Positions 59,276 to 64,000 of a stretch of 64,000 bases of DNA are shown here, in pieces (within the stretch, counting starts at the first letter, position 1; each line of letters starts with the position of its first letter). The stretch spans positions 80,001 to 144,000 of the forward strand of contig NZ_CP018153.1 in the NCBI RefSeq assembly GCF_001889005.1, written 5' to 3'. Source of the stretch: Christiangramia salexigens (GTDB lineage Bacteria; Bacteroidota; Bacteroidia; Flavobacteriales; Flavobacteriaceae). Below the pieces are notes generated by a model, which saw only the letters and a program-made list of their open reading frames with translations, was not told the DNA's origin and ran no database searches. The translations under genes and the position numbers were made by a program.

Positions 59276-59360
59276 GGAGAAATGGCAGAGTGGTCGAATG
59301 CGGCAGTCTTGAAAACTGTTGAGGGTCACACCTCCGGGGGTTCGAATCCCTCTTTCTCCG
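59276..59360 (+). tRNA. tRNA-Ser (anticodon UGA)
   Basis: The 85-nt class II tRNA has a 7-bp acceptor stem GGAGAAA/TTTCTCC with discriminator G. The D arm is GCAGAGTGGTCGAATGCGGC, and the anticodon loop CTTGAAA has TGA at 59310-59312. A long variable arm and the T arm GGGGGTTCGAATCCCTC follow. CCA is not encoded. Its 3' end is a classical integration target and lies at the border of the accessory region. Confidence 0.96.
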
Positions 59361-59367
59361 CTACGAA

Positions 59368-59402: not shown

Positions 59403-59425
59403 TTAGGGGCATAATTAGGGGCATA
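59403..59425. repeat. short tandem direct repeat beside the tRNA
   Basis: The 11-bp sequence TTAGGGGCATA occurs twice with a 12-bp period (59403-59413 and 59415-59425), directly after the tRNA terminator. Such repeats near a tRNA end may be integrase arm-binding sites; that role is inferred. Confidence 0.5.
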
Positions 59426-59473
59426 CTATTTATTGAGTTTTATTTCCATTGATTGTTTAAATTTATAATAAAA

Positions 59474-60133
59474 ATGGGCAAAATCTCAACAAAACAGGCA
59501 CTTTTAGATTTAATACATGTAGATGTGCACTTACCTAAAATAGCTTCCGACTATCCAGAATTTAAACCGATAACTGATTTTATCATTGAGGGTGACTTTT
59601 TAAACGAGGAAGAAGATAAACCTTATCCTACTGTTAAGGATGTTGCTGAGCATACTGATATCCGATATGATAAGGTAAGGAAACAAGTTCTTAAACTGTA
59701 TGATTTGATGTTTCCATTTTTGGAGAACAGGTACCTTAAGTTTACAGAAGTAAAATATCAACTTCACTTTTCTTATTTTGGTAGAGATCACTATATGGTG
59801 ATAGATTCATTTCCTGTGCCGTTGCGAGTTGGTGAGAATGTTTCCGTTCCATTTTTGAAAGCGAAATTTCAGATTTATCAATTCTACGTTTCATCAATTA
59901 ATCATCGGTTTGAGCAAAATGTTCAATATATTGAAGTAGAACTTAAAAGCGGAGATTATAATATGTATTGGCACCTCCGTAAGGATGAAGGACTAGCTAC
60001 TGGAGAAATTCCTAGGGGAGCTCTTTATGCAAAGGATGATTATTCTCTAAGAGAGGAAATAATAAAAGGGAAGGATATGACTGTCTATAATTCAAGAGTG
60101 AATGAATATAAAAAAAGGAGGTGGGGCTTTTAG
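59474..60133 (+). CDS. hypothetical protein with possible N-terminal helix-turn-helix
   Basis: I do not recognise this 219-residue protein. The N-terminal part (about 1-75) is helical; YPTVKDVAEHTDIRYDKVRK could be a winged-helix or helix-turn-helix unit. The rest is beta-rich (YQLHFSYFGRDHYMVIDSF, YIEVELKSGDYNMYWHLRK). There is no signal peptide or membrane segment. The start is set at MGKISTKQALLDL; an in-frame start seven residues earlier is less likely. It is the only rightward gene of the island and converges on the defence-like cassette, 66 bp away. It may be regulatory or cargo. Confidence 0.7.
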   Translation: MGKISTKQALLDLIHVDVHLPKIASDYPEFKPITDFIIEGDFLNEEEDKPYPTVKDVAEHTDIRYDKVRKQVLKLYDLMFPFLENRYLKFTEVKYQLHFSYFGRDHYMVIDSFPVPLRVGENVSVPFLKAKFQIYQFYVSSINHRFEQNVQYIEVELKSGDYNMYWHLRKDEGLATGEIPRGALYAKDDYSLREEIIKGKDMTVYNSRVNEYKKRRWGF

Positions 60134-60199: not shown

Positions 60200-61054
60200 C
60201 TATTTATCATATTCATTGCGCAATATCTCGGCAATCATTTTTGTCTCATGTATATTCTTACCAGTAGTTTGGACCACTATTCCATACCCTGCATCCTCCC
60301 AATGTAGGACAATTTCAATTATTCCTGAGTGTGATTGATTAAATATAAAACGAGAAGTATTTGGATTGAATGGTAAAGAGTTTACAATGCTATCGACATA
60401 AGGATTTTTTCTTATTTTTTTAGAAAAAGCTAATAATATATCTTTTCCATGATCATCACGGAGACTTATGGTTTTTTCATTAGAGTCTTTATTTGATGTT
60501 TCTAGAATTATATTCATTCTATCAATTGAATAGTCATGAAAAGACTTATTGCCTTCTAAGTTGCTATCGCAGATATTTATAACACTTACTTCTGTTTCTT
60601 CTGTCATTTCTTCATTAGTTTCAGTAAATGATATTTTCTCTTGTGTCCAAATTTCATGGGTAGTAAGACTAATAGCTGGAATGTCTAAAAGTATAGCTGT
60701 ACTTAAACCTTTGCAATAGTCTAGATGAATCTTAGGATCTTCACATTCAAAAGAATATTTCATGGTTTCATTCATATTCTCTTCAAGAGCTTCGTCAGAA
60801 AAAGGTCTTCTAAATAAGATAGGTTGAATTCTGTTTTTTTCCGGAGTACTTAATTCACCAAACCATTGTATAAAAGTTTTGCCTTCAGAATTCACTAATT
60901 GACTGGAAAGTTCCGATGGAGTAATTATATGATCATAGCCAAACTCACTTTTTAATTGAATAAAGGTGCTAATTAGGTGTTCAAATTTTTGAAATAAAAC
61001 ATGGTCATTACCCAAGTATGGTTTCAAGGATAATTCATTGAAGGATAAGTTCAT
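60200..61054 (-). CDS. hypothetical protein, last gene of the DUF262/DUF3696 cassette
   Basis: The 284-residue soluble protein is not recognised. The N-terminal region is helical (FQKFEHLISTFIQLKSEFGY), with a conserved-looking IQPILFRRPFSDEAL. The middle is acidic (about 150-200, many Glu, Asp and Asn). The C-terminal 75 residues form a compact alpha/beta unit (NPYVDSIVNSLPFNP, GIIEIVLHWEDAGYGIVVQT, ETKMIAEILRNEYDK). No nuclease motif is evident. Its ATG overlaps the ATPase stop (TAATG), so the two are translated together; it is likely the ATPase's partner, perhaps sensor or effector. Confidence 0.75.
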   Translation of the reverse strand: MNLSFNELSLKPYLGNDHVLFQKFEHLISTFIQLKSEFGYDHIITPSELSSQLVNSEGKTFIQWFGELSTPEKNRIQPILFRRPFSDEALEENMNETMKYSFECEDPKIHLDYCKGLSTAILLDIPAISLTTHEIWTQEKISFTETNEEMTEETEVSVINICDSNLEGNKSFHDYSIDRMNIILETSNKDSNEKTISLRDDHGKDILLAFSKKIRKNPYVDSIVNSLPFNPNTSRFIFNQSHSGIIEIVLHWEDAGYGIVVQTTGKNIHETKMIAEILRNEYDK

Positions 61055-62193
61055 TAAAACAACTTCATTAATTGATTATTCCATTCGTCCATCAGTCCTT
61101 TTGGATATTCACTTAATTCGCCATTAGAATCCAATTCAATATTAATAATCGAGCTATATTGTTCTAATTCTTCTTCAATTTTTTTGAAGTAAAAAAGAAT
61201 AACTTTTTCTTTATCTAGCAACTTTTCATTGACACTGATTCTTATCCCATTAACAATATGGTCGCTATGAGTTTCGATAATTATTTGAACGTCATTTTGA
61301 GCAACTAAACCGATTAATCTGCCTAATTCAGCTTGCCCTCTAGGGTGTATATGACTTTCTGGATTTTCTATGATAACCAATCCTCCTGGCTCAGCTGATA
61401 ATAATGCTGTTATAACGTGTAATGAATATGAAATTCCAAATCCAACATTTTCAGGCCTAAAACTATTTGTTCTTCCTAGATTTTTCTGTTGGAAATTGTA
61501 CTCGAGTTGAATTACTTCAGATGCTAATTGATTTGTAGCTACTGAAACTCCAGGAGAGATCTCTCTTAACCAGGCGTTAATTTGAGTAATTAGCTGTCTA
61601 TTGATTATCTCCTTTTTTCCTATTGGATCATATGTTCTTGTGCTAGGATGTATCAAATTGTCAAAAGATATATTTTCTGAACCTCTTAACTCTAAATAAT
61701 GAGCGGTAAACTCTCCATTTTTTCCAATGCTATTAGATTCCATTACGTCAGCGTAGGATGCTTTATTAATGGATTGTGGCTCTGTCCTTTGAGCGTTCAA
61801 ATACTGAAAATTTTCATTGAAGAGAGCTTCAGATACATTTTCATTGAGAAAAGGAAATATATTTTCGTTACTGCTTGAAATTACATTACTATCAAGCTTA
61901 TAATCGAACTCTAAATTAAATAGTTCCTTTTTAGAAAACTGAATTGAAAAGCCAATCTTATCCACTTCACTATATTGATATAATACATCTTTTGAGGTAC
62001 CTAAATTGGTTAAGCTCCCATTTAAGTTTAATTTTCCTAACCCTAGCTTTTGAGATTGTCTAAGTAGTAAAAGGCTCTGAATTAAGGATGACTTACCCTG
62101 GCCATTCATTCCAACTAAAACATTTAAATTTTTTAAAGGAAAAAACTTCGATTTTATTGATTTGAAATTTTTAATTTCTAATTTTTCAATCAT
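61054..62193 (-). CDS. AAA family ATPase, DUF3696 type
   Basis: The 379-residue ABC/SMC-like ATPase starts IEKLEIKNFKSIKSKFFPLK. It has Walker A VGMNGQGKSSLIQSLLLLRQ (about 28-40), a signature-like FGISYSLHVITALLSAEPG, the Walker B variant LVIIENPESHIHPRGQAELG and the switch IIIETHSDHIVNGIRI. The C-terminal YPKGLMDEWNNQLMKLF is the mark of DUF3696. It probably uses ATP to sense DNA or a phage product and control its partners. The start is ATG 62193, overlapping the DUF262 stop by 4 bp (ATGA); a TTG two codons upstream is less likely. Confidence 0.9.
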   Translation of the reverse strand: MIEKLEIKNFKSIKSKFFPLKNLNVLVGMNGQGKSSLIQSLLLLRQSQKLGLGKLNLNGSLTNLGTSKDVLYQYSEVDKIGFSIQFSKKELFNLEFDYKLDSNVISSSNENIFPFLNENVSEALFNENFQYLNAQRTEPQSINKASYADVMESNSIGKNGEFTAHYLELRGSENISFDNLIHPSTRTYDPIGKKEIINRQLITQINAWLREISPGVSVATNQLASEVIQLEYNFQQKNLGRTNSFRPENVGFGISYSLHVITALLSAEPGGLVIIENPESHIHPRGQAELGRLIGLVAQNDVQIIIETHSDHIVNGIRISVNEKLLDKEKVILFYFKKIEEELEQYSSIINIELDSNGELSEYPKGLMDEWNNQLMKLF

Positions 62194-63347
62194 ATACAAT
62201 CATTAATTAAATGATTAATAGTCTCGTGCCTATATTGAACTCTTTTTTTATCACCCGTGGCACTAGTTACAGAAGTAAAAAAATCGGGGTTATCCGAAAG
62301 CTCTTGTGCTAATTTAGATTTAAATTTATTTGAGTTTTTTAATAATCGATCAGCTTCCTGAGAATTAAGTAAGCCTAGTTGCGTAGATAATCCATCAAAT
62401 AGGGCTTTGTTAATCGGGGGGAGTCTTTCATAAACCCCTCTCACTTTTCTAAAGGCCTCCCTATCGAAAATTTTATGAGCTAAAACCATGGAGGATTCAA
62501 ATGCTTGTTTAACTGACTCCAGTTCTTCATCAGTTCTATCATTGATTTCAGCCATAGCTCTACTCATAAATGAGTCTAAGTCTTGACCGTATTCTTTTGA
62601 ACCATAATTTTTGAGACCTAATAGGTAGAAACTAACAAATCTATTTGCGAAGTCACGATCTAACATTCTCTCTGTCTTAATCTTATAATTCGTAGCTTTC
62701 TTAAATGATTCTAGTTGAGCGAGTTCATGAATGAATTTAGATGGTTTTCCTTGAAAAAGTGCGTGCCTGATTTCTTGGGATTCAAGAATAAGTCCACCTG
62801 TATTAATCCTTTTGAAAATATTAAATTTTACATCAGTAGGAGTTCCAGGCATAATTTTGTAAATAACAACCTGCGATTCTTCTATAACCCTATGTAAGTC
62901 TTCCGAAAGATCGTCCCACTTTTTACCATTTAGATGAGTTAAAAATTCGAGATTAACTAATGATAAAGTCTTATCAACAACAAAATTCCGAATACTACTT
63001 AGTCTTTGTAAGCCATCAACTACCAACCATTTATCATCATCACTTGCATCAAAGAAAAATGCAGGAAGAGGAAATCGTATTAAAATCGATTCAATCAATC
63101 GACTTTGCTTTGTTTTATCCCAAAGATCATCTTTACGTTGAAAATAATCTTCAGTATTCATCTGAATGCTCGATCTTTTTACCCTTTTAATTAAGGTGTC
63201 CAACGATGGAGTTTTTGTCTCAATTTTAATTAGGGTAGGATCAAAGGGCCTTTCCATTAATAGCGATTCATCATCCATTGATTCAATTTCGATATCCTCT
63301 GCATTATCCCATACTAAGGAATTTGAATTATGATGTGGATTGTCCAT
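62190..63347 (-). CDS. DUF262 (ParB/Srx-fold) protein
   Basis: The 385-residue protein has an acidic N-terminus (about 1-45). The DUF262 core (about 60-260) shows SRLIESILIRFPLPAFFFD, the hallmark VDGLQRLSSIR (usually DGQQR, residues 111-118), and NIFKRINTGGLILESQEIRH. A helical C-terminal region (about 260-385) follows. DUF262 is the NTPase half of GmrS-type type IV restriction enzymes, but the HNH DUF1524 half is absent. It is the gene before the ATPase (4-bp overlap) and starts 49 bp after the helicase/nuclease stop. Confidence 0.92.
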   Translation of the reverse strand: MDNPHHNSNSLVWDNAEDIEIESMDDESLLMERPFDPTLIKIETKTPSLDTLIKRVKRSSIQMNTEDYFQRKDDLWDKTKQSRLIESILIRFPLPAFFFDASDDDKWLVVDGLQRLSSIRNFVVDKTLSLVNLEFLTHLNGKKWDDLSEDLHRVIEESQVVIYKIMPGTPTDVKFNIFKRINTGGLILESQEIRHALFQGKPSKFIHELAQLESFKKATNYKIKTERMLDRDFANRFVSFYLLGLKNYGSKEYGQDLDSFMSRAMAEINDRTDEELESVKQAFESSMVLAHKIFDREAFRKVRGVYERLPPINKALFDGLSTQLGLLNSQEADRLLKNSNKFKSKLAQELSDNPDFFTSVTSATGDKKRVQYRHETINHLINDCI

Positions 63348-63396
63348 AGGATTTACTGTAATTTAAATACAATATAGTAATATCAATTAAAATAGG

Positions 63397-64000
63397 TTAA
63401 TTAGAATCTTGAAGTGTTTTCTTTAAAATTTCTCTTATATAGGTGTTAGTATCTTCCGTCTGGAAATACACGTTCTCCTTATGAAAATCTTCTCTGTCCA
63501 ACTCATCCTTCCAATGAACTTCCATTAAACGAGTATTACTCACCACGAACGAATTAAGACTGATTTCCTCCGAAGCAACCTGCGGCTGGATCTTATTTTT
63601 AAGGTATTTGTAAAACTGAATTTTAGGATCATTGATCGATTTGGAATTCCTTATGCCTTTAGGATCTACAAAAGCAATATGCTGTTTACCATTTTTAATG
63701 ATCCATAGGATAAAATCAGGATAGAAATTGTTGGTATCTATAAAGAATCCAATCCCCTTTTTACTCTGATTTCTTAGTAGAAATACTTCCTGATCTTCAA
63801 ATTGATCATAATTTGCTCTGTAGTATTTTACAAGGTCATCTGCGAACATTTTCTCAGATTCATCCAGGGCGATAGGACTAACCTTTAATTTTTGATTATA
63901 GGATTTTACATCTAGATAAAGTAGGGGCTTGTAAAGATGGTGATCATTGTCAAAAGCTATAAAATTACTACCTAACTGCTTTTCACCTTCAAATTCCTGG
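63397..64000 (-). CDS. C-terminal part of a helicase/nuclease (type III restriction-like), partial at window edge
   Basis: The reading frame is open from the right edge to the stop at 63397, about 200 codons, so the internal Met at 63849 is not the start. Residues upstream of it read KLKVSPIALDESEK and YKPLLYLDVKSYNQ. The segment NNFYPDFILWIIKNGKQHI followed by AFVDPKGIRNS has the PD...DPK pattern of a PD-(D/E)XK nuclease. It resembles the C-terminal end of DEAD/DEAH-box restriction helicases, but the helicase motifs would lie outside the window. It is probably the upstream gene of the DUF262/ATPase cassette. Confidence 0.72.
   Translation of the reverse strand, partial: QEFEGEKQLGSNFIAFDNDHHLYKPLLYLDVKSYNQKLKVSPIALDESEKMFADDLVKYYRANYDQFEDQEVFLLRNQSKKGIGFFIDTNNFYPDFILWIIKNGKQHIAFVDPKGIRNSKSINDPKIQFYKYLKNKIQPQVASEEISLNSFVVSNTRLMEVHWKDELDREDFHKENVYFQTEDTNTYIREILKKTLQDSN

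What the first reader, a model, noticed from the sequence alone, without database searches (positions are those of the whole stretch)
60200..64000. Candidate defence cassette: nuclease/helicase end, DUF262, DUF3696 ATPase and an unknown protein in one coupled run
Seen: four leftward genes with gaps of 49 bp, -4 bp and -1 bp, more AT-rich by eye than the core genes, beyond a tRNA-Ser. Known: DUF262 occurs in GmrSD-type restriction, SMC/ABC-like ATPases with DUF3696 are common in defence islands, and PD-(D/E)XK nucleases with helicases form restriction systems. Inference: the three coupled genes form one anti-phage module, perhaps with the helicase/nuclease as DNA cutter. It could match an already described ATPase-centred system such as Menshen; I cannot recall that domain list well enough to decide.
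Basis: partly seen in the sequence, partly recalled or inferred. Interest (0 to 1): 0.72.

Follow-up and report, generated by a model that had tools for sequence, protein, structure and literature searches.

The report
Menshen anti-phage operon in tRNA-linked island
Three overlapping genes next to a serine tRNA form a Menshen anti-phage operon, a known kind of bacterial immunity whose third protein looks like a built-in toxin with an interchangeable business end; this copy is a good example rather than a new system.

Summary
Window 60200-63347 holds three coupled leftward genes; a fourth (63397 onward) runs off the window. The 'nuclease/helicase end' is the Res subunit of a separate type III R-M system with its own Mod gene. 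All lie in an AT-rich, about 24 kb integrase-bearing island inserted at tRNA-Ser, with 17-bp att repeats; six of 23 relative loci show an empty-looking site.

NsnC is probably the effector. Its first ~180 residues are shared across several Menshen subtypes, while the C-terminus takes one of nine types (my labels) among 52 trios. In three trios it is a YoeB mRNA-interferase domain. NsnA and NsnB trees reject a single YoeB clade, so NsnC genes appear to have moved between NsnA-NsnB backgrounds. The window's own C-terminal domain has a confident alpha-beta4-alpha model but no fold match; its activity is inferred.

[quoted passage not shown] Interest 0.25.

The parts
59276..59361 (+). tRNA-Ser (tga), insertion site of the island
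   Evidence: ARAGORN; conserved with some upstream DNA in 23 of 24 genus genomes, the own one included
59345..59361 (+). attL: 17-bp direct repeat at the 3' end of tRNA-Ser; partner attR at L003:4209-4225, about 24 kb to the right
   Evidence: exact repeat; in six of 23 relative loci the tRNA is followed directly by a terminator-like sequence resembling the one that follows attR here
59405..59425 (+). 21-bp repeat shared with the DNA beside the integrase gene (L003:4073-4093), possible integrase arm site
   Evidence: exact repeat; role inferred
59453..60133 (+). hypothetical protein inside the island, no family match; not part of the trio
60200..61054 (-). nsnC: predicted effector of Menshen (284 aa)
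   Evidence: PADLOC PDLC03895 4.5e-107 over 1-281 of 281
60500..61054 (-). NsnC residues 1-185: N-terminal domain shared by several Menshen subtypes
   Evidence: hhalign (first 180 residues) to the YoeB-type N-terminus 99.9% (9e-33) and to one RIHF-type set 99.7% (2.4e-25)
60203..60499 (-). NsnC residues 186-284: C-terminal domain, inferred toxin/effector; fold alpha-beta-beta-beta-beta-alpha
   Evidence: AlphaFold2 pLDDT 93.6, pTM 0.84; no confident PDB match; also matched by the end of a PADLOC CARF7 model, 2.6e-13
61054..62193 (-). nsnB: SMC/OLD-like ATPase with C-terminal DUF3696 (ATG start; TTG at 62199 possible)
   Evidence: PADLOC PDLC03878 2.2e-110; PF13175, PF13304, PF12476
62190..63347 (-). 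nsnA: DUF262/GmrSD_N protein with DGLQR motif
   Evidence: PADLOC PDLC03877 6.8e-125; PF03235 3e-20
63397..64000 (-). 3' end of a type III restriction Res subunit (1063 aa in full); separate neighbouring system
   Evidence: PDLC03654 9.4e-216; Mod gene PDLC03646 4.5e-228 adjoining

Best explanation
The three genes are a Menshen (NsnABC) anti-phage operon carried by a tRNA-Ser genomic island. Shown: the identity of the three proteins, the recurrence of the trio, the two-part structure of NsnC in several subtypes, and that three related NsnC proteins end in a YoeB domain. Inferred: NsnA (DUF262 nucleotide-binding fold) and NsnB (SMC/OLD-like ATPase without a Pfam-detected Toprim nuclease domain) form the sensor and switch that detects phage DNA or its processing; NsnC docks on them through its N-terminal domain and is held inactive; on infection, nucleotide turnover frees the C-terminal toxin domain. 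In YoeB-type systems this would cut mRNA on the ribosome and stop translation, an abortive response. In this window the slot is filled by another small domain, most likely also a nucleic-acid-cutting toxin, whose chemistry is not shown.
For: Full-length PADLOC matches for all three genes in the order A-B-C; each of the 52 third genes kept has A and B beside it. NsnC N-termini of the window, YoeB and one RIHF set are homologous (98.2-99.9%), while 36 of 36 C-terminal type pairs stay at 5.3% or less (C-versus-N controls 0.8% or less, 18 of 18). YoeB domain PF06769 near residues 203-282 in three NsnC proteins, 5.4e-16, 2.7e-14, 2e-12, above the Pfam cut-off; residues aligned to E46, R65, H83, Y84 of E. 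coli YoeB are identical in L040 (active-site role recalled). NsnB and NsnA trees place the three YoeB systems apart inside the window-type group; one clade rejected, p-AU 5.7e-6 and 8.5e-8. DGxQR present in 52 of 52 NsnA frames. Plasmid and island locations.
Against: No phage-resistance, toxicity or binding data. The window's own C-terminal domain has no fold or sequence match that makes it an enzyme. RelE-like appearance of other C-termini was judged by eye; Pfam and PDB searches did not support it. The ELRIF-type N-terminus shows no detectable kinship to the rest, and three types were not compared, so one common docking domain is not shown for all. A C-terminal domain could in principle be a second sensor instead of a toxin. 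NsnB motifs by regular expression are missing in some rows (Walker A 43, ENPE-like 45, ETHS 46 of 52; the window has all three). On the NsnC N-terminal tree the YoeB rows group with only moderate support (86/76).
Confidence: 0.78

Rival explanations
1. Menshen is a DNA-targeting restriction-like system: NsnA/NsnB (GmrSD-like plus OLD-like) cut phage DNA and NsnC is a specificity or sensor subunit whose variable C-terminus reads different phage signals.
For: DUF262 is part of type IV GmrSD enzymes, and a review calls the Menshen partner a predicted OLD nuclease and links a Toprim family to one Menshen component (passages of PMC10952713). PF03235 in NsnA; short match to an OLD-family endonuclease chain, residues 268-324 of NsnB, 1.8e-8.
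Against: No DUF1524/HNH family listed for NsnA and no Toprim family for NsnB at E up to 1; the OLD match covers only part of the ATPase core. A YoeB toxin in the variable slot fits an effector, not a sensor.
Confidence: 0.15
2. The four genes of the finding are one composite cassette in which the type III Res helicase-nuclease is the Menshen cutter.
For: Same strand, 49-bp gap, same island.
Against: Res has its own Mod partner; no listed feature of 13 annotated plasmid Menshen stretches is named type III Res or Mod (gene tables incomplete).
Confidence: 0.03
3. The trio is a decaying or inactive relic in the island.
For: Menshen is rare among relatives: the NsnC model matches 2 of 39 genomes in the nearest set, the window included and the other a weak match with stops; two fetched relatives (L038, L047) have NsnC reading frames that end before the similarity does, and the NsnA frames found in L049 and L050 are short (222 and 196 aa; cause not examined).
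Against: All three frames here are open and full length; NsnA DGLQR and the three NsnB motifs tested are present.
Confidence: 0.04

Closest known systems
Menshen (NsnABC; described in Millman et al. 2022 according to PMC10952713, passages read)
   Same: Gene order A-B-C, DUF262, ATPase, third gene; all three PADLOC models matched at full length.
   Different: Nothing found that sets it apart from the PADLOC class; a review mentions an OLD/Toprim nuclease component, and no Toprim family was listed for this NsnB.
Menshen domain polymorphism (Li et al. 2025, Nucleic Acids Res. gkaf357; only the citation seen; paper not held)
   Same: Title states domain polymorphism of Menshen, the same theme as the variable NsnC C-termini found here.
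   Different: Cannot be told: whether the YoeB form, the window-type domain and the tree evidence are in that paper was not seen.
YoeB mRNA interferase (PF06769)
   Same: C-terminal domain of three related NsnC proteins.
   Different: Fused to the NsnC N-terminus; the window's own NsnC has no PF06769 match.
GmrSD type IV restriction enzymes
   Same: DUF262 N-terminal domain with DGxQR.
   Different: No DUF1524/HNH nuclease domain listed.
PADLOC model CARF7--CARF_DUF2103 (PDLC01930)
   Same: Its positions 255-352 of 353 match the window NsnC C-terminus, 2.6e-13.
   Different: No CARF protein with this domain was seen. Six hits in six genomes: the window's NsnC by place, two opened and read as NsnC (L084, L085), three (L081-L083) taken as NsnC from their genome and frame length, not opened.

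Membership tests
Menshen (NsnABC) | NsnA, NsnB, NsnC in one operon in that order | tested here: met
Menshen (NsnABC) | DUF262 in NsnA, ATPase with DUF3696 in NsnB | tested here: met
   PF03235 3e-20; PF13175 1.5e-21, PF12476 5.7e-13
Menshen (NsnABC) | NsnC model over its full length | tested here: met
   PDLC03895 1-281 of 281
Menshen (NsnABC) | protects against phage, needing the genes | not testable with these tools
   needs plating assays
GmrSD / type IV restriction | DUF1524 HNH domain in the same protein or a partner | tested here: not met
   not listed at E up to 1 for any of the three
OLD / Gabija GajA-like nuclease | C-terminal Toprim nuclease domain | tested here: not met
   no Toprim family among Pfam hits of NsnB at E up to 1; DUF3696 reaches residue 380 of 381
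RelE/YoeB (BECR-fold) toxins, for the window's NsnC C-terminus | sequence or fold match to the family | tested here: inconclusive
   no Pfam match; hhalign to the YoeB type 0.1%; no confident fold match
RelE/YoeB toxins, for NsnC of L009/L054, L040, L046 | YoeB profile above cut-off; active-site residues aligned | tested here: met
   (three of three above 27 bits); residues checked in L040 only
Type III restriction-modification, for the gene at 63397 | Res and Mod adjoining | tested here: met
   PDLC03654 9.4e-216, PDLC03646 4.5e-228

The most novel reading that the evidence does not exclude
NsnC is a plug-in cassette: a docking domain plus exchangeable toxin that moves as a gene between NsnA-NsnB backgrounds, and the window's version carries a small toxin domain of a fold not matched in the PDB, shared with a CARF-linked family in the PADLOC library, so that one toxin would be wired to two different immune sensors.
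Probability: 0.35. Interest if true: 0.5.

Novelty: new member of a known kind. Interest (0 to 1): 0.25.

Why it matters
It settles an open guess (Menshen or not) and gives a testable mechanism for a system that a 2026 review still lists as of unknown mechanism (passage of PMC12926258): NsnC as an effector with interchangeable toxin ends, one of which (YoeB) has known chemistry. The YoeB-type operons make the mechanism directly testable with standard ribosome and RNA assays. The general idea of Menshen domain polymorphism is already in print by title, which lowers the novelty.

Tried and rejected

Searches that found nothing: NsnC in plasmids and phages, single-sequence NsnC scan of genome contigs, NsnA and NsnC scans of viral contigs, the window-type C-terminal domain in plasmids, phages and viral contigs. 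No CARF protein bearing this C-terminus was seen in the six genomes searched for PDLC01930; other orders could not be searched. The K+-channel gene right of the island was not found in the other 23 genus genomes at E 1e-100, so the empty site was tested from the tRNA side.

Selection and dropped rows. The 52 trios: the window; 14 plasmid loci found through NsnA (14 fetched of 40 listed of 137 records, from the better-scoring rows); 22 found through NsnC (26 loci, less L038, L045, L047, L048 with truncated or early-ending NsnC); 15 found through NsnB. In one search there were 25 NsnB loci in 22 of 395 genomes; three (L055, L056, L074) repeat loci already held, and seven with longer ATPases (L067-L073) were set aside by eye as another family, so trios are counted in 15 of 395 genomes. 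For the 13 annotated plasmids and the window the A, B and C genes were taken by their coordinates; the other 38 by phmmer. Not all frames are complete: NsnC of L033 runs off its contig, that of L025 is short as annotated (239 aa), NsnA frames in L029, L049 and L050 are 298, 222 and 196 aa. Near-copies are included (for example L013/L014, L049/L050, L052/L053, L061/L062, L075/L076). The nine C-terminal types were assigned by eye with regular expressions as an aid. N-termini of the HDRY, ELRSY and HGKDKR types were not compared by hhalign.

Literature: Menshen was sought, related themes; where passages were read (PMC10952713, PMC12839542, PMC12704722, PMC12926258; PMC11980606 and PMC10865869 have no mention) Menshen appears in passing or in a reference list. 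Li et al. 2025 was seen only as a citation.
Full report
What is there. The window end holds four leftward genes exactly as described: 60200-61054, 61054-62199 (ATG at 62193), 62190-63347 and a gene from 63397 running out of the window. GC is 0.382 before the tRNA-Ser and 0.321 after it. PADLOC identifies the three complete genes, at full length and in order, as NsnC (4.5e-107), NsnB (2.2e-110) and NsnA (6.8e-125), the Menshen system. The window is G000:C1:80001-144000 of a 2.98-Mb genome.

The fourth gene is not part of it. Read in full (L002:4397-7588), it is a 1063-aa type III Res subunit; after a 3-bp gap comes a 989-aa type III Mod gene and then a 958-aa SNF2 helicase closest to DrmD models. 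No feature listed in the 13 annotated plasmid Menshen stretches is named type III Res or Mod, although that gene table is incomplete and other defence genes do lie near some trios (a DEAD/DEAH helicase and DUF1837 gene in L019; brxL in L013).

The island. The 17 bases AATCCCTCTTTCTCCGC at the 3' end of the tRNA-Ser (59345-59361) recur at L003:4209-4225, about 24 kb to the right and just past a tyrosine recombinase gene (L003:2829-4064; PF00589); a 21-bp repeat lies inside each end. The tRNA with some upstream DNA is found in 23 of 24 genus genomes, the own one included. Of 23 relative loci (from 22 genomes), six (L088, L095, L096, L098, L105, L106) have the exact 17-mer followed directly by a terminator-like sequence that resembles the one right of attR here, so the island sits between the tRNA and its terminator; L102 and L103 show similar DNA there without the exact 17-mer; in L090, L097, L107 and L108 an integrase-like open frame of 406-430 aa follows instead; the others continue differently or, in L091, end there (integrases read by eye). 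The tRNA is therefore a shared integration site, and Menshen came with a mobile element. The NsnC model matches only 2 of 39 nearest genomes (one of them a weak match broken by stops), 2 of 395 in the order and 6 of 395 in the phylum (the own genome counts in each).

Conservation of the trio. I kept 52 third genes: the window, 14 plasmid loci, 22 named genome loci and 15 further phylum loci. Each has NsnA, NsnB and the third gene together. They were found through NsnA, NsnC or NsnB and the plasmid rows are among the better-scoring ones, so this is recurrence, not an unbiased rate; the dropped rows are listed under Tried and rejected. A hydrophobic-hydrophobic-DGxQR motif is present in 52 of 52 NsnA frames.

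NsnC is two-part. All-against-all blastp shows pairs that match only at the N-terminus, for example L054 with L028 over residues 1-163 (3e-24) and L051 with L030 over 1-186 (2e-20). Profile comparison gives 99.9% for the window-type and YoeB-type N-termini, 99.7% for window and one RIHF set, 98.2% for YoeB and that set; 86-94% between these and a second RIHF set; the KFRVS N-terminus reaches 96.6% with the second RIHF set and 55-90% with the three sets before it, EIRLD 77.5% and 45.6% with two sets and under 1% with the rest; ELRIF matched none (1.0% or less). All 36 pairs of the nine C-terminal types are at 5.3% or less; the 18 C-versus-N controls are at 0.8% or less. The types number 21 RIHF, 18 window-type (TTGR), 3 YoeB, 2 ELRIF, 2 ELRSY, 2 KFRVS, 2 HDRY, 1 EIRLD, 1 HGKDKR; these are my labels, assigned by eye.

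The YoeB form. In L009 (same place as L054), L040 and L046 the C-terminus is a YoeB toxin: PF06769, 5.4e-16, 2.7e-14, 2e-12, cut-off 27 bits passed by all three. Against E. coli YoeB (2a6q), the residues at E46, R65, H83 and Y84 are identical in L040 (that these are active-site residues is recalled). YoeB is a known mRNA interferase (passages of PMC11980606; that paper has no mention of Menshen).

Exchange. On the NsnB tree of 52 rows the three YoeB systems fall in three places within the window-type group, one of them (L046) in the window's own 11-row clade (100/100); supported branches force three changes. Holding them as one clade is rejected for NsnB (p-AU 5.7e-6) and for NsnA (30 rows, p-AU 8.5e-8). 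On the NsnC N-terminal tree (30 rows) they group together, with only moderate support (86/76). The simplest reading is that the nsnC gene, with its toxin, was exchanged between nsnAB backgrounds. One genome, G690 (86% complete, 2% contamination), has three NsnB loci with three different third-gene types (L058, L074, L076), and Desulfobacterales HSG2 has two NsnC types on different contigs (L049, L084).

The window's C-terminal domain. Residues 186-284 are modelled with pLDDT 93.6 as alpha-beta-beta-beta-beta-alpha; whole NsnC 91.4. Invariant in 18 sequences within this domain: His202, Gly203, Gly244, Thr264, Gly265, Thr271, Ile274. No confident fold or sequence match was found, so its activity is inferred only from the slot it occupies. 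A PADLOC CARF7 model ends in the same domain, but no CARF protein was seen. In 395 phylum genomes the domain was found at E 1e-5 in three genomes, the own one included, each time in NsnC.

Known or new. Menshen is a described system; a review says that mutation or deletion of its DUF262 gene abolished resistance and links it to a predicted OLD nuclease (passages of PMC10952713), and another lists its mechanism as unknown (passage of PMC12926258). The reference lists of PMC12839542 and PMC12704722 cite Li et al. [quoted passage not shown] The locus is therefore a new member of a known kind, and the variable NsnC end is at least in theme already published. What remains useful is a clear, testable effector model and the open identity of the window-type domain.

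Noticed in passing
L002:4397-13444 (right of the window): Type III Res and Mod with a DrmD-like SNF2 helicase as third gene in one run; DrmD NCBIfam match below its curated cut-off (684.9 of 950).
   Followed up: partly
L002:14646-19006: Pair of overlapping genes: 526-aa protein with a weak ZacA match (2.9e-4) and 927-aa PLD-domain protein with a ZacB match (8e-15), possibly an Azaca-like system (name of the system recalled).
   Followed up: no
L002:13563-14621: 352-aa protein with a just-above-cut-off Pfam BIR match (1.2e-4, 23 against 22.9 bits), odd for a bacterium; possibly a zinc-ribbon-like chance match.
   Followed up: no
L090, L097, L107, L108 (genus relatives): The same tRNA-Ser is followed by integrase-like open frames of other elements (read by eye): an integration hotspot in the genus.
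   Followed up: partly
G690: L058, L074, L076; Desulfobacterales HSG2: L049, L084: Single genomes with two or three Menshen loci, each with a different NsnC C-terminal type.
   Followed up: partly
L067-L073: Longer ATPases (445-542 aa open frames) hit by the NsnB model, with other third genes nearby; look by eye like a sister family.
   Followed up: no
L018:7035-7757 and L066:771-1487: Short NsnC (about 240 aa) ending in an HDRY...SG motif resembling PLD-like proteins by eye.
   Followed up: no
L020, L024 (plasmids): Menshen trio flanked by recombinase genes (L020) or by IS5 elements (L024), suggesting transposon-like carriage.
   Followed up: no
L019:843-4434 (plasmid): A DUF1837 gene and a DEAD/DEAH helicase directly before the Menshen trio, perhaps a Hachiman-like pair (name recalled).
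   Followed up: no
L065 (G147, same family as the window): Menshen-like trio with a 307-aa third protein that matches no other collected third gene by blastp; C-terminus has an HGK...YHGYHL pattern.
   Followed up: no
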